A stretch of 64,000 nucleotides of DNA from a virus. The notes beneath the pieces were generated by a model. That model searched no databases, was not told where the DNA came from, and saw only the letters and a list, made by a program, of their open reading frames with translations. The translations under genes and the position numbers were made by a program. Positions within the stretch are counted from its first letter, which is position 1. Every line of letters starts with the position of its first letter. Below, in pieces: positions 32,956-43,841 of the stretch. The DNA lies in the IMG/VR virus record IMGVR_UViG_3300028384_001275, positions 1 through 64,000 of that record, one strand, 5' to 3'.

Positions 32956-32963
32956 GGTAAATT

Positions 32964-33755
32964 ATGGGAAGATTTGGTGCATTTTCGGGGCAAACTCCTA
33001 CAGGATCAGGACTATATTCTGCTGGCAATAGCGGCGGCGGTGGTGGAGCTGCTCCTTTAGGTAGTGCTTCTAATCCTGCCCCTAATGCTGAGGCACTTCG
33101 TGCAGCTGGTATTACAACAGAAGGGGCGTATTACATTAGTCTTCCTAATGTGGGATCGAAACTGACATATTGTGCTCCATCATCAGGATTTGCTGGTGGT
33201 GGTTGGATGCTTGCATGGAAATGCACTCGTGGATCTAGATTCTCTTGGGGATCTAACTACTGGACAAGCTCCAATATATATCGTGAGACTGATATGGGTC
33301 GGTCTGATAATGATGCAAAGTATGATGTATTCAATAACTACAGTGCTTCTGCATTCCTTGCTATCTTCCCTGATATTGGTCGTAATGGTGGGCAAGCATC
33401 TGGATATGGTAATGGTTGGAGTTGGTTGCAAACAGGACAAAATAGCACCTGTTTGAGTAGATTCCAAACCCAAAGCCAGATCTCAGGTAACCCTCGTGGG
33501 CAGAATATGTGGCAGGGATCTGGATTCTCTGCACAGGGTGGATTCCAATGGTATGGATTTAACTATACAGGCAATGGTAGTCATAGAGTCCGTTGGGGAT
33601 TTGGTTGGAATAATGAAGGCGATCAAAATTCTAATGACGTGCAAGGTGGTATCGGCACTCAGCGTGGCGGATCATCAGCAGGAGATCATATCTATTGTTG
33701 TCAGACAACAACTGGTGTAAATAGGACTATCAGAGCGGAGATTTGGGTCAGATGA
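32964..33755 (+). CDS. Virion protein with fibrinogen C-terminal-like domain
   Basis: This 263-residue protein has a glycine-rich N-terminus followed by a domain resembling fibrinogen-related (FReD) lectin domains: EALRAAGITTEGAYYISLP, then YCAPSSGFAGGGWMLAWK. FReD domains bind glycans, so a receptor-binding fibre role is inferred. Aromatic residues are unusually frequent. The following gene overlaps its stop (ATGA). Confidence 0.65.
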   Translation: MGRFGAFSGQTPTGSGLYSAGNSGGGGGAAPLGSASNPAPNAEALRAAGITTEGAYYISLPNVGSKLTYCAPSSGFAGGGWMLAWKCTRGSRFSWGSNYWTSSNIYRETDMGRSDNDAKYDVFNNYSASAFLAIFPDIGRNGGQASGYGNGWSWLQTGQNSTCLSRFQTQSQISGNPRGQNMWQGSGFSAQGGFQWYGFNYTGNGSHRVRWGFGWNNEGDQNSNDVQGGIGTQRGGSSAGDHIYCCQTTTGVNRTIRAEIWVR

Positions 33756-33985
33756 CATATGAAAGTTATTTGAGAGAAGCAAAGAAGTTATATCAATCTC
33801 GTGATGGTCAGCATGTTATAGACTTCGCGAAGAAGGTTGCTACTGAGTTTGATAAGGTAGTCGCAGAAGAGATTACTATTGAGCAGTTTGCGGATAATGT
33901 GCCTGACAGTGAATACACTGAAGATGCTCCGATCAGACACCTTAACTACATCAAGTCTCAGTTAATTCATTATTATCCTGAATAA
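33752..33985 (+). CDS. Small hypothetical protein in tail fibre module
   Basis: A 77-residue helical protein begins MTYESYLREAKKLYQ. The ATG at 33752 overlaps the upstream stop as ATGA. It may be a fibre assembly factor by position, but no family is recognised. Its stop codon overlaps a late promoter for the first adhesin paralog. Confidence 0.6.
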   Translation: MTYESYLREAKKLYQSRDGQHVIDFAKKVATEFDKVVAEEITIEQFADNVPDSEYTEDAPIRHLNYIKSQLIHYYPE

Positions 33986-33988
33986 ATA
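33981..33988 (+). promoter_or_regulatory. Late promoter AATAAATA (first adhesin)
   Basis: It lies 26 bases upstream of the first 269-residue adhesin gene. Confidence 0.6.
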
Positions 33989-34013
33989 AAATAGGAAAGG
34001 ACCTTTATCCAAT

Positions 34014-34823
34014 ATGGCACAGTTAAGAGTTGGAGCTGTAAAAGACCTCAGTAACATTGGTGGATTTACATTTTCCTCTGGTGGAGTTACTGCTAATGGT
34101 GCATTGACAGTTACTAATCTGGAAGTTACTGGATCTATCACAGGATCGTCTAATTTCTTGATCCCTAATCCATCAGGTAATGCAGGTCAATATCTGACTA
34201 CCAATGGATCTTCTATGTCATATGGTGAGCTGAGTACTGCAGCGGGTGCCAGATCTATGCAGGTCTGGACATCTAATGGGACCTGGACTAGACCGAGTGG
34301 TGTTAAAACCATTATGGTCACAGTTACTGGTGCTGGTGGAGGTGGATCTGGTCACTGTGAATCGGGTGGTGCAGGTGGCACATCTCAAAGACAATTAGAT
34401 GTTACAAATATCTCTTCCGTATCCGTTACTGTAGGTAATCCTGGTGGAGGCACTAATTACTCTGGTTGTGGTGGAGGTGGTAACTCATCTTCATTCGGAT
34501 CTTACTGTAGTGCAGGAGGTGGTACGGGAGCTAACTGTAGACAGCAACACTCTGGTGGAATCGGTGGTAACGGATCTGGCGGATCGCTAAACATCTATGG
34601 TGGCGGCGGTAACGGTCATGGGTCACACTATTCCTATGGCAATCACACTGCTGGTCCATCATATTGGGGTGGCACTCAGCCCTCATCTCATAGACAGAGT
34701 AACTACTCCCACCGTCATCAGAACCATTGTGCCTGGGGTGCTGGCGGTAACGGCGCTCAGCACGGCAACCGTGGCGCTCGCGGTCGTGAAGGTGTAGTTG
34801 TTGTCCATGAATTCTTCGGCTAA
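34014..34823 (+). CDS. Glycine-rich tail fibre adhesin, paralog 1 of 3
   Basis: This 269-residue protein has an N-terminal attachment region (MAQLRVGAVKDLSNIGGFTF), a conserved core QVWTSNGTW, then a glycine-rich distal domain (CESGGAGG, TNYSGCGGGGN, YGGGGNGHGS) and an ending HRHQNHCAWGAGGNGAQHG...RGREGVVVVHEFFG. The pattern recalls polyglycine-sandwich tips of T4-like gp38-type adhesins. It is paralogous to the next two genes and of identical length. Likely host-recognition protein. Confidence 0.75.
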   Translation: MAQLRVGAVKDLSNIGGFTFSSGGVTANGALTVTNLEVTGSITGSSNFLIPNPSGNAGQYLTTNGSSMSYGELSTAAGARSMQVWTSNGTWTRPSGVKTIMVTVTGAGGGGSGHCESGGAGGTSQRQLDVTNISSVSVTVGNPGGGTNYSGCGGGGNSSSFGSYCSAGGGTGANCRQQHSGGIGGNGSGGSLNIYGGGGNGHGSHYSYGNHTAGPSYWGGTQPSSHRQSNYSHRHQNHCAWGAGGNGAQHGNRGARGREGVVVVHEFFG

Positions 34824-34826
34824 ATA
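34820..34826 (+). promoter_or_regulatory. Late promoter candidate CTAAATA (second adhesin)
   Basis: It overlaps the stop of adhesin paralog 1, 17 bases before the paralog 2 start. Confidence 0.5.
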
Positions 34827-34842
34827 CTAAAAAAGACCTAAC

Positions 34843-35652
34843 ATGTCACAGATTAAAGTATCTTCAATTAGGGATCTTACTGACGCTGCTGGTTTTACTC
34901 TGGCATCTGGTAAGATTATTACTGTAGGCACACTGACAGTTTCTAATATCACTATTAATGGTGATATTTTTGGTGGGTCTTCCTATATTATTCCTGAGCA
35001 ATCTGGTAACGCTGGTAAACTCCTGAGATCTACAGGTAGTGGTCTTGAGTGGGCTGAAGGTGCTGGGGCTGCTGGTATTAGATCCATGCAAGTGTGGACA
35101 TCTAATGGCACCTGGACACGCCCCACTGGTGTTAAATCTATTATTGTAACAGTTGTTGGTGCTGGTGGAGGTGGATCTGGTCACTGTGAATCTGGCGGTG
35201 CTGGTGGTATGGCTGAGCGTGTAGTTGATGTTACTAATGTTTCATCAGTTTCGGTAACCGTAGGTAATCCTGGTGGAGGCACTAATTACTCTGGTTGTGG
35301 TGGAAACGGAGGTACAACATCTTTCGGGTCCTATTGCTCAGCATCTGGCGGATATGGTGCTAACTGCCGCACACAACATGCTGGAGGTATCGGCGGCAAC
35401 GGATCTGGTGGTAGTGTTAATGTATACGGTGGTGGTGGTAATGGTCATGGATCTCACTATTCCTACGGAAATAATGTAGGGGGTAAGTCTTACATGGGTG
35501 GTTCTCAAGCATCGTCACATAGTCAGAATAACTATGCACATAGACACCAAAATCATTGTGCTTGGGGTGCTGGTGGCAACGGTGCTAAGCATGGTAACCG
35601 TGGTGCTAGAGGACGCGAAGGTGTAGTTGTCGTCCAAGAATTTTTCGGTTGA
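34843..35652 (+). CDS. Glycine-rich tail fibre adhesin, paralog 2 of 3
   Basis: A 269-residue paralog of the preceding gene with the same order of blocks: MSQIKVSSIRDLTDAAGFT, QVWTSNGTWTRPTGVKS, CESGGAGG, TNYSGCGGNGG, YGGGGNGHGSHYSYG, HRHQNHCAWGAGGNGA, RGREGVVVVQEFFG. Differences from paralog 1 cluster in the middle attachment region and in the distal glycine-rich loops (for example NNVGGKSYMGG versus NHTAGPSYWGG), as expected for receptor-binding variants. Confidence 0.75.
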   Translation: MSQIKVSSIRDLTDAAGFTLASGKIITVGTLTVSNITINGDIFGGSSYIIPEQSGNAGKLLRSTGSGLEWAEGAGAAGIRSMQVWTSNGTWTRPTGVKSIIVTVVGAGGGGSGHCESGGAGGMAERVVDVTNVSSVSVTVGNPGGGTNYSGCGGNGGTTSFGSYCSASGGYGANCRTQHAGGIGGNGSGGSVNVYGGGGNGHGSHYSYGNNVGGKSYMGGSQASSHSQNNYAHRHQNHCAWGAGGNGAKHGNRGARGREGVVVVQEFFG

Positions 35653-35658
35653 TAAATA
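35651..35658 (+). promoter_or_regulatory. Late promoter GATAAATA (third adhesin)
   Basis: It overlaps the stop of paralog 2, 20 bases before the paralog 3 ATG. Confidence 0.65.
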
Positions 35659-35678
35659 ACTAAACAAGGGCATAAGAC

Positions 35679-36488
35679 ATGAGTGTACTCAAAGTAAGTC
35701 AAGTCAGAGACGTTGCTGGTATTGGTGGATTCAACCTTTCTAGTGGGTCGATTACTTCTGTGGGCACACTTAAAGTGAATAATATTGTTATTAATGGCAA
35801 TATTTCTGGATCTTCAAACTATGTGGTCCCTTCACAATCTGGTCAGTCAGGTAAATATCTGACTACCAATGGATCAACTTTGAGCTGGGGGGAAGTATCC
35901 CAAACATCTGGATTTAGATCTATGCAGGTGTGGACATCTAATGGCACTTGGAATAAACCATCAGGTGTCAAGTCTATTAGAGTGCAGGTAGTTGGTGCTG
36001 GTGGAGGTGGATCGGGTTATTGTGAATCGGGTGGTGCTGGTGGTATGTCTGAACGTGTGATTGATGTTACTAATGTTTCATCGGTCAGTGTCACTATAGG
36101 TAATCCTGGTGGAGGCACTAATTACTCTGGTTGTGGTGGAAATGGTAACACAAGTAGTTTTGGTAGTTATTGCTCAGCATCTGGTGGATATGGTGCTAAT
36201 TGTCGTCAACAACATGCTGGCGGTATTGGTGGCAACGGATCAGGTGGCACTTTGAATGTGTATGGTGGTGGTGGCAATGGTCACGGATCTAACCACTCTT
36301 ATGGTAACTATAGTGCTGGCATGTCTTATATGGGTGGATCACAACCTGGATCCCATAGACAACAAAATTATGCCCACAGACATCAAAACCACGCTGCGTG
36401 GGGTGCTGGTGGCAACGGGGCTAGAAACTCAAACCGTGGTGCCCGTGGTCGCGAAGGTGTCGTAGTTGTATTTGAATACTACGGTTGA
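35679..36488 (+). CDS. Glycine-rich tail fibre adhesin, paralog 3 of 3
   Basis: The third 269-residue paralog: MSVLKVSQVRDVAGIGGFN, QVWTSNGTWNKPSGVKS, CESGGAGG, TNYSGCGGNGN, YGGGGNGHGSNHSYG, HRHQNHAAWGAGGNGA, RGREGVVVVFEYYG. One cysteine of the HRHQNHCAW block is replaced by alanine. Equal length with strong conservation of frame and blocks points to recent duplication and divergence, or to recombination among the copies. Confidence 0.75.
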   Translation: MSVLKVSQVRDVAGIGGFNLSSGSITSVGTLKVNNIVINGNISGSSNYVVPSQSGQSGKYLTTNGSTLSWGEVSQTSGFRSMQVWTSNGTWNKPSGVKSIRVQVVGAGGGGSGYCESGGAGGMSERVIDVTNVSSVSVTIGNPGGGTNYSGCGGNGNTSSFGSYCSASGGYGANCRQQHAGGIGGNGSGGTLNVYGGGGNGHGSNHSYGNYSAGMSYMGGSQPGSHRQQNYAHRHQNHAAWGAGGNGARNSNRGARGREGVVVVFEYYG

Positions 36489-36494
36489 TAAATA
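36487..36494 (+). promoter_or_regulatory. Late promoter GATAAATA
   Basis: It overlaps the stop of adhesin paralog 3 and precedes the 142-residue gene by 24 bases. Confidence 0.65.
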
Positions 36495-36518: not shown

Positions 36519-36947
36519 ATGGCTAAGTACGCAATCGTTAATGGTGAAAACGGATCTTTTAGTGACATCGTAGATGAAGAAGATAAGTTTGAAATCTATG
36601 AGGGTCCCGATTCTAAAGTCCGCTGGATGGAAGTGCCCGATGACACCACTTATGAGCATCTGATGGTTAATGGTGTTGTTATTCACCATAGTGAGCAAGA
36701 AGATCTTCGTGAAGGTGCTGTTGTTAATCGCATGATTGCTTATGGTGACATCGGTGAGCAAATGGACATGATGTTTAGAGATGCCCGTGATGGCACAACT
36801 ACATGGAAAGATCATATTGCTAATGTGAAAGAAACTACAACTTCACCTGGATCTATTCCTGAATTTGTACCCGATCCTAAAAAGACTCAACTTGAAGGAC
36901 GTATGGCATGGGATCCCTGGGTTGACAACTGGGTAGCACCCGAGTAG
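36519..36947 (+). CDS. Tail-fibre-associated protein of unknown function
   Basis: This 142-residue acidic protein begins MAKYAIVNGENGSFSDIVD. It contains IAYGDIGEQMDMMFRDA followed by GTTTWKDHIANVK, a motif common in small phage proteins encoded next to tail fibre genes. Chaperone or fibre-assembly function is inferred from position only. A Shine-Dalgarno AAGGAG precedes the ATG. The gene ends just before the palindrome at the halogenase start. Confidence 0.65.
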   Translation: MAKYAIVNGENGSFSDIVDEEDKFEIYEGPDSKVRWMEVPDDTTYEHLMVNGVVIHHSEQEDLREGAVVNRMIAYGDIGEQMDMMFRDARDGTTTWKDHIANVKETTTSPGSIPEFVPDPKKTQLEGRMAWDPWVDNWVAPE

Positions 36948-36951
36948 TATA

Positions 36952-36976
36952 CATAATGTAAAGACTTTACATTATG
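36952..36976. promoter_or_regulatory. Perfect 12-bp palindrome over the halogenase start codon
   Basis: CATAATGTAAAG (36952-36963), one A, then CTTTACATTATG (36965-36976) form a perfect inverted repeat. Its last three bases are the halogenase ATG (36974-36976). Either a DNA operator or an RNA hairpin that buries the start codon is possible; a hairpin with a one-base loop would need to open several central pairs. Confidence 0.6.
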
Positions 36977-38596
36977 CGCGTAGAAAGTATTTGCATTGTT
37001 GGTGGTGGAAGCAGCGGATGGATGTCCGCTGCTTTGTTGTCTAAAACCTTTCCAGATATTGAGGTAGCATTAATAGAACCTGAAGACAGTAATCCTATTG
37101 GTGTAGGTGAATCTACATTAGGACACTTCAATCGGTTTCTAGCTAGATTAGACTTGCATGATGAAGATTGGATGCGAGAATGTCAAGCAACCTATAAAAC
37201 TTCTATTGCATTCAAAAACTTTAGAGAGGGTAATGGGGAGAGATTCCAGTATCCTTTCGGTGGATTTGATATGACCGAATTCAAAGATGGAATCATGAGA
37301 TTCTTTGAATTGCAATGTCAATATGGTCAAGAAGAATATCCACCAGAAGAATTTGCCCGTTTTGCCAATCACAACACTTATCTAGCAGAAGAGTGTCGTA
37401 TTACAGACGAAGAGATTCCATTCTCAAATTACAGTTTTAAGAATGACACTGCATATCACTTTGATGCTGCATTATTTGGTCAATATCTAAAGACTAACAT
37501 TGCAATTCCCAATGGTGTAACACACCTGTTGGGTGATGTTGAGAATGTTGTAAAGCGCCCCGATGGATCTATTGAGTCCATTGTGACAACCACAGGTGGT
37601 GTAGTTAGTGCAGATCTATTCGTTGATTGCACAGGATTTAAGTCATTGTTGCTTGAGCAACATATGGGCGTTGAGTTTCATTCTTATAATGATCTTCTCT
37701 TTAATGATAGAGCACTTGCCACTCAAATTCCTTACACTGAGGGTAAGCGTGAGCAACAAATGGAGACCTACACTGATTGTGTAGCTATGGATCATGGTTG
37801 GGTGTGGAATATCCCACTATGGCATCGTGTGGGCACAGGATATGTTTATAGTAGTAAATATACCACTGATGATGATGCTGAGCGAGAGTTTAGAGAATAT
37901 CTATATTTTAGATATGGACCTAAGATTGCTGAAGAAGCATATATGCGACCCATCAAAATTAAGCACGGTAAGCATACGAAAGGGTGGGAGAAAAATGTTG
38001 TTGGTATCGGACTATCTTATGGATTCCTTGAGCCTTTGGAATCTACGGGGTTGATGACAACACACGAAAATCTTATTTACTTGTGTGATACATTACTGCG
38101 TCGTAATAGAATTATTACGAAGATGGATTGTGATAGTTATAATTACACAGTGGATCAGATGATTGAAACTATGAAGAATTTCGTAGCACTTCACTATTCA
38201 TTGAGTAGTCGTGAAGATAATCAATACTGGTCTGATTGTGTTAATAAAATGGAATTTATCAATCCAGTAGATTCACCACTGTCAACAATTCTGGGTCAAA
38301 GTGGTATTGAATCACTAATGAATAGTGTTGAAAATAGTTTCTTTAATGAAGAGAAATTTGCTGGATTCATTTATATCACTGCTGGTCAAGGATACCGTCC
38401 AATCAACCCTGAAATATATAAAGAAAGATCTGACATTGATCGAAAATCTGTCGTTGCAACTATTCGCGAAGAATATATACGACAGAAAAAGTTTATGCTA
38501 CAATGGGCAAGCGAGCAACCTACACATTACCAATATCTTTTGGAGCACATTTATGGGACTGATGAATATCTTCAAGAAAAGGAAACCTTGGGTTAG
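36974..38596 (+). CDS. Flavin-dependent tryptophan halogenase
   Basis: This 540-residue protein has the full signature of the PrnA/RebH family. An FAD-binding GGGSSGWM lies near residue 10, followed by GVGESTLG (43-50) and the catalytic lysine in ATYKTSIAF (Lys75). The family WxWxIP motif is GWVWNIP (Trp276, Trp278, Ile280, Pro281), and FLEPLESTG carries the active-site Glu356-Ser357. Such enzymes chlorinate or brominate tryptophan or tryptophan-like substrates with FADH2, and cyanophages are known to carry them with unknown substrates. It heads an overlapping gene chain of oxygenases. Its start codon lies in a palindrome. Confidence 0.93.
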   Translation: MRVESICIVGGGSSGWMSAALLSKTFPDIEVALIEPEDSNPIGVGESTLGHFNRFLARLDLHDEDWMRECQATYKTSIAFKNFREGNGERFQYPFGGFDMTEFKDGIMRFFELQCQYGQEEYPPEEFARFANHNTYLAEECRITDEEIPFSNYSFKNDTAYHFDAALFGQYLKTNIAIPNGVTHLLGDVENVVKRPDGSIESIVTTTGGVVSADLFVDCTGFKSLLLEQHMGVEFHSYNDLLFNDRALATQIPYTEGKREQQMETYTDCVAMDHGWVWNIPLWHRVGTGYVYSSKYTTDDDAEREFREYLYFRYGPKIAEEAYMRPIKIKHGKHTKGWEKNVVGIGLSYGFLEPLESTGLMTTHENLIYLCDTLLRRNRIITKMDCDSYNYTVDQMIETMKNFVALHYSLSSREDNQYWSDCVNKMEFINPVDSPLSTILGQSGIESLMNSVENSFFNEEKFAGFIYITAGQGYRPINPEIYKERSDIDRKSVVATIREEYIRQKKFMLQWASEQPTHYQYLLEHIYGTDEYLQEKETLG

Positions 38597-39432: not shown

Positions 39433-39789
39433 ATGTCTGAAAATGTAAAAGAAGTCAACCTGACTGAGGTTGCTGGTGTGAAAACAACTGAAGAGAAACT
39501 TCAAGAAAGCAAAGAGAATGAGGTTACTGATCTTATCTCTTATGACGATCTTGTTTATAATTTCTTGCAACAGTTTGAGGATACTAAAGAGGAGTATAAG
39601 AAACTGCAAGAAGCACTAGACAATATGCACTACACTTCTACAATCACCAAGATTTCACTAGAAGAAATGCAAACGAAGAAAGACCATATGAATAAGCTTG
39701 CGGGTGCTATTGAGGCAATGTATCTGTATAAAAAGCATGTCAATCCCGAGTGCTCCGATAAAGATTTTACTTTTGAAGATGAAGACTAA
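39433..39789 (+). CDS. Small coiled-coil hypothetical protein
   Basis: This 118-residue, highly charged protein has a heptad-like helix around residues 45-95 (EEYKKLQEALDNMH; LEEMQTKKDHMNKLAG). It overlaps the start of the first oxygenase by 11 bases. A scaffold or assembly role is possible but not supported by any family match. Confidence 0.65.
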   Translation: MSENVKEVNLTEVAGVKTTEEKLQESKENEVTDLISYDDLVYNFLQQFEDTKEEYKKLQEALDNMHYTSTITKISLEEMQTKKDHMNKLAGAIEAMYLYKKHVNPECSDKDFTFEDED

Positions 39790-40429
39790 ATTATTATTTC
39801 CCACACCTGTCTGGATTCAAGATGAGTGTGGGATTGATCTTAATAAATTAACTGAATTTTGTTATTTTGTAGAGAAAGAAGATCCAGAAGGAAGACACGC
39901 AACCAATGATGGTGGTTGGCAATCTCATGACTTTGTTGATAGTGTCATGAAAGATAACCCACTATCTGAAATACGTCAAAAAATTTATGAGTTAGCATAT
40001 GCAGCTTGTGATCAATGGGGGTATCAATATTATTCTCTAAAGATGACTAATTTGTGGATTAATATCAATCGCAAAGGTCATTCTAACCTTATGCACACAC
40101 ATCCTGGATGTATTTTGTCGGGAGTTTATTATGCTAAAGTGCCCGAATGTTGTGCTGGAGCACTTTCTTTTGTCCGAGATTTTAGAGAGCAACATCTAAA
40201 AGAATCATGGGGCAATGCTGCTAACTTTTCAAAGTGGGATGAAGACATGAATATGGATGAATATGATGTTTATCCAGAGGCAGATAAGATGGTATTGTTT
40301 CCGTCATGGATGCCACATGTGGTGAGTAGATCTTCATCCGATGGTGATAGAGTATCTCTATCTTTTAATATCCTTGCATTTTCCAATCATTATAATGAAA
40401 TATATCCAACTGGACAACATAATCGGTAA
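39779..40429 (+). CDS. 2OG-Fe(II) oxygenase, TIGR02466-like (first of a run of six)
   Basis: This 216-residue protein begins MKTKLLFPTPVWIQDE, the FPTPVW start typical of TIGR02466 proteins. It has NLMHTHPGCILSGVYYAKVP (His106/His108), LFPSWMPHVV (His180) and RVSLSFN (Arg191), the expected metal and 2-oxoglutarate ligands. Family members hydroxylate unknown substrates and are frequent in T4-like cyanophages. The ATG at 39779 sits in the 3' end of the previous gene. Confidence 0.85.
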   Translation: MKTKLLFPTPVWIQDECGIDLNKLTEFCYFVEKEDPEGRHATNDGGWQSHDFVDSVMKDNPLSEIRQKIYELAYAACDQWGYQYYSLKMTNLWININRKGHSNLMHTHPGCILSGVYYAKVPECCAGALSFVRDFREQHLKESWGNAANFSKWDEDMNMDEYDVYPEADKMVLFPSWMPHVVSRSSSDGDRVSLSFNILAFSNHYNEIYPTGQHNR

Positions 40430-41060
40430 GACACATCTGTCTAGGTTGTTTCATATTTTATCCGCACCTGCTGGTGGATTCCCTTGGTTTTTCCTATCGG
40501 AAGATGTTAGCTATAGCACCAATGATTATACCTTTGGTGATGTGCATATTTTAGATATTCCTGAAAAACAAAAAAGTATTGGTTTCACTCATGTGTTGTT
40601 AGATAGTGATGGAAGTAAGAGTCCTTATTATGAGATCTTTGCAGCACTATTAGATGAAATCCAAGATGCCTTACCTGCCCCTATCGAGTTTTTTCGTGTT
40701 AGACTTGCATTGCAGTTGAATAATGGTATAGACTCACATAATGCAGCACATACTGATAGTGAGAAAGATCATTATGCTGCATTATTTTACTTTCATGATT
40801 CATCTGGAGACACTGTATTCATGGATCAATATGATAATCCCAATGAAGGTACAATTGATGAAAGATGGATGAGAGCGAGGACTCAAAACTACACTATTCA
40901 AAAGAGAGTAACACCCAAAGCGAATAGATTGTTTGTATTTGATGGTCATCAATTTCATTCATCATCCAATCCAACTGACAATAAGTTTCGTATTATTCTG
41001 AATCTCAATTTCACTTCTGATGTCGATCTCTTCGCTGCTGCAAACACTAACAACAACTAA
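40395..41060 (+). CDS. 2OG-Fe(II) oxygenase, prolyl-hydroxylase-like (second)
   Basis: This 221-residue protein has AAHTDSEKDHYAALFYFHD (His119-x-Asp121), FDGHQFHSS (His185 or His188) and Arg199, the P4H-type H-x-D...H...R triad. It begins MKYIQLDNIIG and overlaps the upstream gene by 35 bases. Substrate unknown. It is part of a chain of overlapping oxygenase genes, so all are probably made from one mRNA. Confidence 0.8.
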   Translation: MKYIQLDNIIGKTHLSRLFHILSAPAGGFPWFFLSEDVSYSTNDYTFGDVHILDIPEKQKSIGFTHVLLDSDGSKSPYYEIFAALLDEIQDALPAPIEFFRVRLALQLNNGIDSHNAAHTDSEKDHYAALFYFHDSSGDTVFMDQYDNPNEGTIDERWMRARTQNYTIQKRVTPKANRLFVFDGHQFHSSSNPTDNKFRIILNLNFTSDVDLFAAANTNNN

Positions 41061-41724
41061 AAACTGGGATATTGATGATACTCCCCAATATTGGCAGAAT
41101 ATATGTGATGATCCCAGTGTATTTGCTACATGGAAAGAAGTTGAGTATTGCCTTAATAATCCACAGGTATTTGATATTCAGCTAATTGATTCTAGGACTA
41201 ATCAATACTACGATCTGCAATACTTCCCCAGACACTGGTCTAAACCTTGCCCTGATGTGTCTGATATTATGGATGCTGTCTCCAATGGACATAATATCGT
41301 AATCAATAATTTTAGCTGGGTTAATCACAAAAAACAAATACTATTGGATCAAATTGAGAATACTTTTCATGGTATAACTGCTGACTTTCATGTTTATGCT
41401 GGCATCAAAACTTCAAAGTCATTTAGAATACATGAGGATTATTCTAATAACTTTATTGTCCAAGTGGAAGGAGAAACGCACTGGAAAGTATATAACAATC
41501 GTCGATCATTCTTAAACACACAAATAAATTATATTCTTAATGAGGATGATTTAGATTGTATTATTGATGTTAAAATGCAACCAGGAGATATTCTCTACAT
41601 ACCACAAGGGTGTTATCATTTAGCACAACCACAAGAAAAAAGATTGTCTATTAGTATTCCTATGCAATCTAGATTGGCACACTTAAAAATGACAGATCGT
41701 AAGTATTATGCTCTCCCCAGTTAA
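41020..41724 (+). CDS. JmjC/cupin-type 2OG oxygenase (third)
   Basis: This 234-residue protein has a JmjC/ROXA-like core: FRIHEDYSNNFIVQVEGETHW (His138-x-Asp140), MQPGDILYIPQGCYH (His200), and a following beta strand RLSISI. JmjC-type hydroxylases act on protein side chains (ribosomal Arg or His in bacterial ROXA-like enzymes). It overlaps the previous gene by 41 bases. Confidence 0.82.
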   Translation: MSISSLLQTLTTTKNWDIDDTPQYWQNICDDPSVFATWKEVEYCLNNPQVFDIQLIDSRTNQYYDLQYFPRHWSKPCPDVSDIMDAVSNGHNIVINNFSWVNHKKQILLDQIENTFHGITADFHVYAGIKTSKSFRIHEDYSNNFIVQVEGETHWKVYNNRRSFLNTQINYILNEDDLDCIIDVKMQPGDILYIPQGCYHLAQPQEKRLSISIPMQSRLAHLKMTDRKYYALPS

Positions 41725-42313
41725 TGTATTTCCATACATTTATAAAGCACAGTATGATTTTAATTTTGAATCTATTCAGCATGTAGTAGATCAACATTTA
41801 GATGATGCTCGTGAGCGTGGCAATCCTGTTACCTTAGAAAAGAATGGTGGCGTCACGAGTGTTGTATTGTGCAAGGAGAATCCTCCTCATGGGTGGCCTT
41901 TGTTTGATGATTTTAAGGAGTGGTTGTTTCCTACTGTAGATGAATTGTGGGAAACTTGGAGAATGCAACCATGCTGTAAAACATTATCTGAGTCTTGGAT
42001 TAATGTGCATCCCCCTGGTGCATATACTGCTGAGCATCATCATCAAAATGTCCAAGTTGCTGTATCCTGCTATCTCTCAGTGCCAGAAAATAGCGGTAGG
42101 TTTGTCATACAAAATCCACTAAACATTTATAAGTTGGGTGAACCACTCAACTATCACTATTATGATCAGGAGATGGATTGGATGCCTATTGATGTGCAAA
42201 CGAATGATGTGCTATTCTTCCCAGGTTGGTTAAACCATAAAACTGAAGTCAATAAATCAAACGACAATAGATATATTATGTCAATGAATATCATGGGTAA
42301 TCTTAATGCTTGA
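41708..42313 (+). CDS. 2OG-Fe(II) oxygenase, TIGR02466-like (fourth)
   Basis: This 201-residue protein contains AYTAEHHHQNVQVAVSCYLSV (His110/His112), FFPGWLNHKTE (His177) and RYIMSMNI (Arg188), the ligands of the TIGR02466 group. N-terminus: MLSPVNVFPYIYK. It overlaps its neighbours on both sides. Substrate unknown. Confidence 0.8.
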   Translation: MLSPVNVFPYIYKAQYDFNFESIQHVVDQHLDDARERGNPVTLEKNGGVTSVVLCKENPPHGWPLFDDFKEWLFPTVDELWETWRMQPCCKTLSESWINVHPPGAYTAEHHHQNVQVAVSCYLSVPENSGRFVIQNPLNIYKLGEPLNYHYYDQEMDWMPIDVQTNDVLFFPGWLNHKTEVNKSNDNRYIMSMNIMGNLNA

Positions 42314-43010
42314 AGTCCACGACACTAAAATTGTAAATTGGCAGTTGTTTGAGAAGATTGTGCATCTTCCCTACAAATTCACACGCACTGATGTGCCACC
42401 AACAGAATCACGTCCAGAGATAGATTTCGCTGGTCTTTATTGGACTCATCAGCTATACAATTACTGTCCAGTTTCTGACCCTGACTATTTTCAGAATGCA
42501 GGACTTGATGGTAGTGATGATCCTATGTGGAAAGATATCCTCACCTATCTAGAGGCAACTGTGCCTAGTATGCCCCCTCGGGATAATCTTTATAGTGCAT
42601 ATATTAATGTATTGCGAGAGGGCAACAATCCTGGCATTCATGTTGATGCACCATATTTTGTGCCTGACAATCAAACAGTGCTGTTATATTTGAATCCTGA
42701 TTGGGATCCAGAATGGGGTGGCGAAACTATATTTTTTGATCATGATCTTGACGCAAAAACTCTTGTTGCTCCTCGTGCTGGTCGTATTGTTATCTTTGAT
42801 GGCAGGATCCCCCACACAGGAAGACCACCAACGCCAAAATACAACCACAACAGGTATATTATGGCATTCAAATATATGAATCCAGAAGAGCGAGAGAAAC
42901 TATTTGTTGACTATGAATTGAATAACATGCCACCTGTTGAGGATCGTGGCATCGCGGGTTTTGATTCCCTGACAGTAAAAGAAATCTGGAAAACACTTGA
43001 CAAAATCTAA
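42306..43010 (+). CDS. 2OG-Fe(II) oxygenase, prolyl-hydroxylase-like (fifth)
   Basis: This 234-residue protein contains NPGIHVDAPYFV (His112-x-Asp114), the segment WDPEWGGETIFFD, and FDGRIPHTGRPP (His170) with Arg183. This is the best match in the run to classic 2OG-Fe(II) prolyl-type hydroxylases. A dense aromatic N-terminus precedes the core. Overlaps the upstream gene by 8 bases. Confidence 0.83.
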   Translation: MLEVHDTKIVNWQLFEKIVHLPYKFTRTDVPPTESRPEIDFAGLYWTHQLYNYCPVSDPDYFQNAGLDGSDDPMWKDILTYLEATVPSMPPRDNLYSAYINVLREGNNPGIHVDAPYFVPDNQTVLLYLNPDWDPEWGGETIFFDHDLDAKTLVAPRAGRIVIFDGRIPHTGRPPTPKYNHNRYIMAFKYMNPEEREKLFVDYELNNMPPVEDRGIAGFDSLTVKEIWKTLDKI

Positions 43011-43056
43011 AGAGTGGATATTGTTAAATAGTATTGGACCCTCTAGGGAGGATCAA

Positions 43057-43218
43057 ATGTTCACAGTCAAGTCAGCACTCCTCAATCGTGAGGAAAAAAA
43101 CCTAGTCAGACGTGCCCTCTTTCTTTATCAGAAAGATTGTTATAATCGATATGGTGATCTGACAGACGAGCAACACGAACTAATAGCGGAGATTGCGGAC
43201 AAACTACATTTACGATAA
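43057..43218 (+). CDS. Small hypothetical protein (53 aa)
   Basis: A 53-residue helical protein begins MFTVKSALLNREEKNLVRRAL. I chose the ATG at 43057 because a strong Shine-Dalgarno AGGGAGG precedes it; an upstream TTG is unlikely. Only two bases separate it from the following oxygenase. Confidence 0.65.
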   Translation: MFTVKSALLNREEKNLVRRALFLYQKDCYNRYGDLTDEQHELIAEIADKLHLR

Positions 43219-43220
43219 TT

Positions 43221-43841
43221 ATGGAAGTATTGCCTTTATTTTCTACCCCTGTTTATCTTGATACCTGTGACATTCCTGAGATAGACTTTAACATGGAGTG
43301 GCAGAATCCTTGCGGTGATGATCCTACTTACGGCAACAATGGTAAGATCTCAGCTAATACTAATTGGTTAGAAGTTGGATTGTATAGTGATCTGAAACGC
43401 ACGATTGAAGCACACCTCTCACAATATGTTTTTGGTGTGCTGGGTAGTGGTAAAGGCATCACATTAGAGCACCAATCCTCCTGGGTCAATAGACACGACA
43501 GGGGAGATCGTGCTGCCAATCATGTGCATGTGAATAGCATGTTTAGTGGTGTTTTATACTTAGAGGTCCCACCAGATTCGGGGGATCTAATTTTTAATGT
43601 TCCTGCATCTGTGCCAACCTATTGCACCAACACCGTAAGTTTGGATATTGTAGAACCCAACGTCTACAATCAGCGTGAAGTCCCATTCACACCTGATAGG
43701 GGAGATATTATTATTTTCCCATCACATCTTCCACATTATGTTACAGCTAACAACAGCGATTTGCCAAGATATAGTCTGGCATTCAACTATTTTGCTAAAG
43801 GTGTGGTAGGATACAACGAATCGCGGTTGCATCTGAAATGA
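43221..43841 (+). CDS. 2OG-Fe(II) oxygenase, TIGR02466-like (sixth)
   Basis: This 206-residue protein begins MEVLPLFSTPVYLDTCDIP, the family start. It contains NHVHVNSMFSGVLYLEVP (His101/His103), IFPSHLPHYV (His172) and RYSLAFNYF (Arg183). It closes the run of six oxygenase genes (39779-43841), interrupted only by the 53-residue gene. Confidence 0.85.
   Translation: MEVLPLFSTPVYLDTCDIPEIDFNMEWQNPCGDDPTYGNNGKISANTNWLEVGLYSDLKRTIEAHLSQYVFGVLGSGKGITLEHQSSWVNRHDRGDRAANHVHVNSMFSGVLYLEVPPDSGDLIFNVPASVPTYCTNTVSLDIVEPNVYNQREVPFTPDRGDIIIFPSHLPHYVTANNSDLPRYSLAFNYFAKGVVGYNESRLHLK

What the first reader, a model, noticed from the sequence alone, without database searches (positions are those of the whole stretch)
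34014..36488. Three equal-length adhesin paralogs, each with its own late promoter
The 269-residue proteins keep identical block order and length while differing in distal glycine-rich loops. Late motifs precede each (33981, 34820, 35651). Having three alternative tips expressed in parallel would allow mixed or switchable receptor binding, and the near-identical DNA blocks (for example those encoding TNYSGCGG) would favour recombination and host-range shifts.
Basis: partly seen in the sequence, partly recalled or inferred. Interest (0 to 1): 0.65.

Follow-up and report, generated by a model that had tools for sequence, protein, structure and literature searches.

The report
Three-slot cyanophage adhesin array, shared tips
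A marine cyanobacterial virus carries three side-by-side copies of a host-binding fibre protein; related viruses nearly always keep the same three in the same order with distinct bases but similar, mutually recombining tips, so they look like one tip mounted in three places rather than three alternative tips.

Summary
Three tandem 269-residue paralogs (71-74% identical) lie at 34014-36488 of a T4-like cyanomyovirus contig. Slots A and C have an exact NATAAATA late motif upstream; slot B has the variant CTAAATA. They are TNF-like plus glycine-rich fibre heads: the best solved match is the cyanophage Pam3 fibre, and the closest named protein is Syn9 gp38.

The base (residues 1-80) diverges most, about 46% identity between copies of one genome against about 82% for the distal domain. 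Across 34 distinct triplet sets and a deeper held-out lineage, bases sort by slot (A, B, C, always in that order). Tips largely lose slot identity and often cluster by genome.

Recombination between copies is supported. The result is shared tips or lost slots, not alternative tips. Own promoters are common but dispensable: 12 of 34 sets have no motif before C. Upstream of slot A lies the cassette that actually varies.

Most likely: an adhesin array with slot-specific docking and a common tip. Receptor, stoichiometry and virion presence are untested; one relative's virion proteome lists neither of its two copies.

The parts
33981..33988 (+). late-promoter-type motif AATAAATA upstream of slot A
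   Evidence: exact NATAAATA; enrichment upstream of gene starts; ATAAATA before slot A in 22 of 34 triplet relatives
34014..34823 (+). slot A adhesin, 269 aa; base = residues 1-80 (34014-34253), TNF-like/glycine-rich tip = residues 81-269 (34254-34820)
34434..34475 (+). conserved block (residues 141-154, GNPGGGTNYSGCGG) in slot A; recombination site in relatives
   Evidence: identical codons in all three copies, p=5e-5; crossovers of L055 and L068 fall in the corresponding block
34820..34826 (+). variant late motif CTAAATA upstream of slot B, overlapping the stop codon of slot A
   Evidence: one mismatch to NATAAATA; before slot B the 34 triplet sets have ATAAATA in 25 and CTAAATA in 2
34843..35652 (+). 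slot B adhesin, 269 aa; base 34843-35082, tip 35083-35649
   Evidence: in the P-TIM40 lineage this slot carries a C-terminal extension of about 260 aa
35263..35304 (+). conserved block in slot B
35651..35658 (+). late-promoter-type motif GATAAATA upstream of slot C, overlapping the stop codon of slot B
35679..36488 (+). slot C adhesin, 269 aa; base 35679-35918, tip 35919-36485
   Evidence: AlphaFold2 model mean pLDDT 86
36099..36140 (+). conserved block in slot C
36487..36494 (+). late-promoter-type motif GATAAATA after slot C, before the 142-aa ORF
36519..36947 (+). 142-aa ORF (phrog_1787) that follows the array; an ORF stands at this place in the annotated isolates examined; possible assembly partner (lead only)
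32956..34013 (+). variable cassette upstream of slot A; here a 263-aa ORF (32964-33755, phrog_1325) and an 80-aa ORF (33743-33985)
   Evidence: content differs between lineages while its two neighbours stay constant

Best explanation
The three genes are ancient paralogous slots of one receptor-binding fibre-head family in T4-like cyanomyoviruses. Each protein has a slot-specific base (residues 1-80, perhaps with the last 9 residues) and a TNF-like/glycine-rich tip (about 81-260). Shown by sequence: slot orthology and fixed order, loss of slot identity in the tips, and recombination between tips centred on a conserved block at residues 141-157. Inferred: each base docks to its own place on the tail-fibre apparatus, and the tips, probably trimeric as in Pam3 gp24, bind one receptor or related receptors on the host. 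Recombination would keep the tips of a genome alike, and a successful tip variant can spread between slots. Unequal exchange occasionally deletes slots.
For: Base tree of 34 triplet sets: each slot is one side of a branch, label changes 2 = the minimum. Tip tree: 10 changes; with 14 independent lineages no bootstrap tree has a slot as one clade. Held-out deeper lineage L134: bases nearest to A, B, C in order (B by a small margin), tips cluster together at 100/100. Two-copy Syn9-like group: bases form two clades of 14, tips cluster together. Slot signal 0.13-0.21 in residues 1-80, about 0 in 141-260, 0.09 in 261-269. Silent sites of residues 81-140 are more alike within a genome than between genomes for the same slot, 12 of 14 lineages, p=0.002; amino acids of 141-260 likewise, 12 of 14, p=0.002. 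Hybrids L055 (A/B) and L068 (A/C). Fold: Pam3 fibre 7ypx, E 8e-9.
Against: Silent sites of 141-260 show no significant within-genome excess (6 of 14), so conversion there is old or patchy, and part of the tip similarity is plain purifying selection. Tips keep some slot clustering (10 changes against about 20 for shuffled labels). Limiting recombination to the tip may simply reflect that the bases are too diverged to pair, with no functional meaning. Support for slot clades of the bases is moderate in the careful trees. No partner for the bases is known. In S-SZBM1, which has two of these genes, the main-text virion table (30 proteins) lists neither while listing fibre genes 51-54 (PMC9146016). 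Both hybrids rest on metagenome contigs, and L068 also has a 1-base frameshift.
Confidence: 0.5

Rival explanations
1. One reading: three alternative tips made in parallel, giving mixed or switchable receptor binding.
For: Three intact copies, late motifs before each; residues 201-220 vary moderately between copies; recombination does occur.
Against: Tips are the most conserved and most shared part; the bases diverge, not the tips. The observed recombination products carry a mixed tip or lose slots. The fast-changing part of the locus is upstream.
Confidence: 0.15
2. A, B and C assemble into one 1:1:1 heterotrimeric, asymmetric fibre tip, which would explain equal length, fixed order, fixed number and matched tips.
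For: Fixed number and order; TNF-like heads form trimers in Pam3 gp24 (PMC9608196); B and C are often coupled by a 4-bp overlap.
Against: Relatives have one copy (L065, L073, L077, L079, L140) or two; S-CREM1 has one intact copy plus one with stop codons; L055 appears to have lost slot B.
Confidence: 0.12
3. Largely neutral: an old tandem triplication kept for dosage, with recombination homogenising whatever is still similar enough to pair; slots have no separate docking roles.
For: Similarity is low in the bases and high in the tips (bases about 50% identical at DNA level in L047); one- and two-copy relatives exist; S-CREM1 and Syn9 have a disrupted copy.
Against: Bases keep slot-specific residues over deep divergence (9 diagnostic positions in 1-80 against 2 in 81-260); near-constant number and order in 34 distinct sets and a deeper lineage.
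Confidence: 0.2

Closest known systems
Synechococcus phage Syn9 gp38/gp39 family (PHROG 863 'tail fiber assembly', Kyanoviridae)
   Same: homologous over full length (about 55% identity), same place in the fibre locus before tryptophan halogenase
   Different: two slots instead of three; Syn9 gp39 carries an internal duplication and a frameshifted end
Cyanophage P-TIM40 gp042-gp044 (Libanvirus), closest isolate
   Same: three slots in the same order with matching slot-specific bases
   Different: middle protein fused to a phrog_1325 domain; genes abut or overlap, with no late motif before the first two
Cyanophage Pam3 fibre gp24 (PDB 7ypx)
   Same: TNF-like plus glycine-rich head, best solved match (E 8e-9, TM 0.53/0.57)
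   Different: helical base and a dedicated chaperone gp25 in a 3:3 complex (PMC9608196)
T-even gp38 adhesins (Salmonella phage S16 gp38, PDB 6F45)
   Same: glycine-rich receptor-binding tip, by general description (PMC9608196)
   Different: not among the 50 best fold matches listed; S16 gp38 has a beta-helix middle domain and attaches to gp37 (PMC9608196)

Membership tests
Pfam Gly_rich_2 (PF21722) | score above gathering cut-off 24.3 | tested here: met
   30.1, 38.6 and 44.1 bits, residues 89-264
PHROG 863 / Syn9 gp38 family | full-length profile match and same locus | tested here: met
   E 2.6e-60 to 4.6e-66 over residues 1-268; same neighbours
Pam3-type TNF-like plus glycine-rich fibre head | fold of the distal domain | tested here: met
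   7ypx top match, E 8.1e-9, on a model of mean pLDDT 86
Pam3-type TNF-like plus glycine-rich fibre head | homotrimer | not testable with these tools
   only single chains can be modelled here
Pam3-type TNF-like plus glycine-rich fibre head | helical N-terminal docking domain | tested here: not met
   model shows short strands in residues 1-80 and no helix
T-even gp38 adhesin (S16 type) | S16 gp38 fold (6F45) | tested here: inconclusive
   not in the 50 best fold matches shown; 119 matches had E <= 10
T-even gp38 adhesin (S16 type) | monomer capping a gp37 trimer | not testable with these tools
   attachment and oligomeric state cannot be determined from sequence here
Receptor-binding protein | present in virion and binds the host | not tested
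   the two homologs of S-SZBM1 are absent from its main-text virion table of 30 proteins (PMC9146016); they should yield 8-9 detectable tryptic peptides each, so absence is mild evidence against abundance
T4-type late promoter | NATAAATA upstream of the gene | tested here: met
   exact for A and C, CTAAATA for B; transcription itself not tested

The most novel reading that the evidence does not exclude
The three paralogs form an obligate three-protein fibre tip: three different bases give an asymmetric mount while recombination keeps the three tips matched, a phage receptor-binding head built as a heterotrimer of tandem paralogs.
Probability: 0.1. Interest if true: 0.75.

Novelty: new variant of a known kind. 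Interest (0 to 1): 0.42.

Why it matters
Marine cyanophages from many ocean samples carry a near-constant set of two or three receptor-binding paralogs whose bases and tips evolve by different rules. This gives a testable explanation for why a phage keeps several nearly identical adhesins, identifies a natural recombination point inside a fibre tip, and warns that adhesin number alone is not evidence of a wider host range.

Tried and rejected
Sequence search of solved structures with the adhesin profile gave only a linker artefact (antibody fragment, E 0.03). A fold of the 263-aa upstream protein came out at pLDDT 45 and was not used; its sequence hints at a fibrinogen-like domain are weak (ficolin-3 E 0.03; COLFI E 0.02). 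A plain within-minus-between comparison at silent sites was judged unsafe alone, since shared codon bias also raises it in the bases (+0.044). A systematic scan inside five lineages found no other recombinant besides L055. Paper searches found no description of this array or of gene conversion between cyanophage fibre heads, in an open-access library only. Virion data of Syn9 were not readable here.

Full report
What is there. The window belongs to a 104,523-base virus record. Gene content and closest isolate (Cyanophage P-TIM40, Kyanoviridae) make it a T4-like cyanomyovirus. Three adjacent ORFs, here called slots A, B and C, each encode 269 residues, align without gaps and are 71-74% identical. 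They match Pfam Gly_rich_2 above its cut-off and PHROG 863 over their full length.

Late motifs. NATAAATA is the published cyanophage late motif (PMC2984593). A and C have exact matches; B has CTAAATA. ATAAATA is enriched just upstream of gene starts in the window (6 of 47 against 0.6 expected; maximum 4 in 500 random sets), as is CTAAATA (4 against 0.26). In relatives the motif recurs at the same places, but 12 of 34 triplets have no motif before C, where B and C overlap by 4 bp, 7 of 34 have none before A and 7 none before B. Separate promoters are therefore common but not a requirement. Promoter activity was not tested.

Fold. An alignment-based model of slot C has mean pLDDT 86. Its best solved match is the Pam3 fibre (7ypx, E 8e-9), then the Bxb1 tail tip and, much more weakly, the TNF-like/glycine-rich domains of LTK and ALK. 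Among predicted viral structures the best match is Syn9 gp38. [quoted passage not shown] I infer the same role here.

Copy number and order. Relatives from viral contigs give 34 distinct triplet sets, more triplets in a second scan and a deeper lineage (L134-L137) also with three. Short sets in the same group are cut by contig ends, except L055 and L068. A Syn9-like group has two copies (14 distinct pairs) and other relatives one. S-CREM1 has one intact copy plus one with several stop codons; Syn9 gp39 has an internal duplication and a frameshifted end. Loss is thus tolerated in some lineages.

Bases and tips follow different histories. Residues 1-80: 46% identical within a genome, 62% for the same slot between lineages. 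Residues 81-269: 82% and 80.5%. A tree of the bases sorts the 34 sets into A, B and C with the minimum of two label changes; the tip tree needs ten, and several lineages cluster by genome (P-TIM40 lineage, L010, L040 B/C, L007 A/B). With one row per lineage no bootstrap tree made any slot one clade for the tips; the bases of C were one clade in 96% of bootstrap trees and those of A and B in fewer, the P-TIM40 rows being long branches there. The Syn9-like pairs show the same contrast. Lineage L134, not used when the pattern was first seen, agrees: its bases are nearest to A, B and C in order (B by a small margin, 0.50 against 0.45 and 0.47) and its tips cluster together at 100/100. Position by position, the slot signal falls from 0.13-0.21 in residues 1-80 to 0.03-0.06 in 81-140 and about zero in most of 141-260, and rises again in the last nine residues. 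At silent sites the within-genome excess is significant for residues 81-140 (12 of 14 lineages, p = 0.002) but not for 141-260; for amino acids of 141-260 it is significant (12 of 14, p = 0.002). Recombination between slots is the simplest account, with purifying selection contributing.

Recombinants. In the window the three copies share identical codons over residues 141-154 (p = 5e-5). In L055 the first of two copies is slot A up to about residue 140 and slot B from about 157, compared with L047, whose flanks are about 99% identical; slot B is otherwise missing. In L068 the single copy is A at the start and C at the end with a crossover in the same block and a 1-base frameshift downstream. 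The longest identical run between L047 A and B is only 19 bp, which makes assembly collapse less likely for L055 but does not exclude it; no reads were available.

Where the locus varies. Between a conserved protein of about 290 residues and slot A lies a short stretch whose content changes between lineages. Here it holds a 263-aa phrog_1325 protein. In the P-TIM40 lineage a homologous domain (40% identity, E 5e-50) is fused to slot B. If host-range plasticity is sought, this cassette is a better first candidate than the three heads; that is inference.

Mechanism and limits. I favour slot-specific docking of a common tip (0.5). Not shown: presence in virions, oligomeric state, docking partners, receptor. 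In S-SZBM1, which has two of these genes, the main-text proteome table lists neither, though neighbouring fibre genes 51-54 are listed (PMC9146016) and 8-9 usable tryptic peptides per protein are expected. They may be low in copy number, or not in the particle at all. Supplementary tables were not read.

Novelty. The protein family is known from annotation and the fold from Pam3. I found no paper on the three-slot array, the base/tip contrast or the hybrids, in an open-access library that lacks most subscription journals. I rate it a new variant of a known kind.

Noticed in passing
32964-33755: 263-aa phrog_1325 protein with weak fibrinogen/ficolin-like sequence hints; a homologous domain is fused to the C-terminus of slot B in the P-TIM40 lineage (gp043).
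   Followed up: partly
32956-34013 and the corresponding stretch in relatives: Variable cassette between a conserved protein of about 290 aa and slot A; different lineages carry unrelated genes here (phrog_1325 type, short ORFs, one family that looks like a 2OG-Fe(II) oxygenase, glycine-rich proteins).
   Followed up: partly
L085 5194-5988: S-CREM1, a cultured isolate, carries a first adhesin copy broken by several stop codons next to an intact second copy.
   Followed up: partly
L081 9807-10985: Syn9 gp39 contains an internal tandem duplication of the glycine-rich domain followed by a frameshifted end.
   Followed up: no
36974-38596 and 39698-43841: Tryptophan halogenase gene followed by a run of ORFs that may correspond to the 2OG-Fe(II) oxygenases annotated downstream of the array in related isolates.
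   Followed up: no
36519-36947: 142-aa phrog_1787 ORF directly after the adhesins; an ORF stands at the same place in the annotated isolates examined, and the S-CREM1 one is annotated yorD. Possible fibre assembly partner.
   Followed up: no
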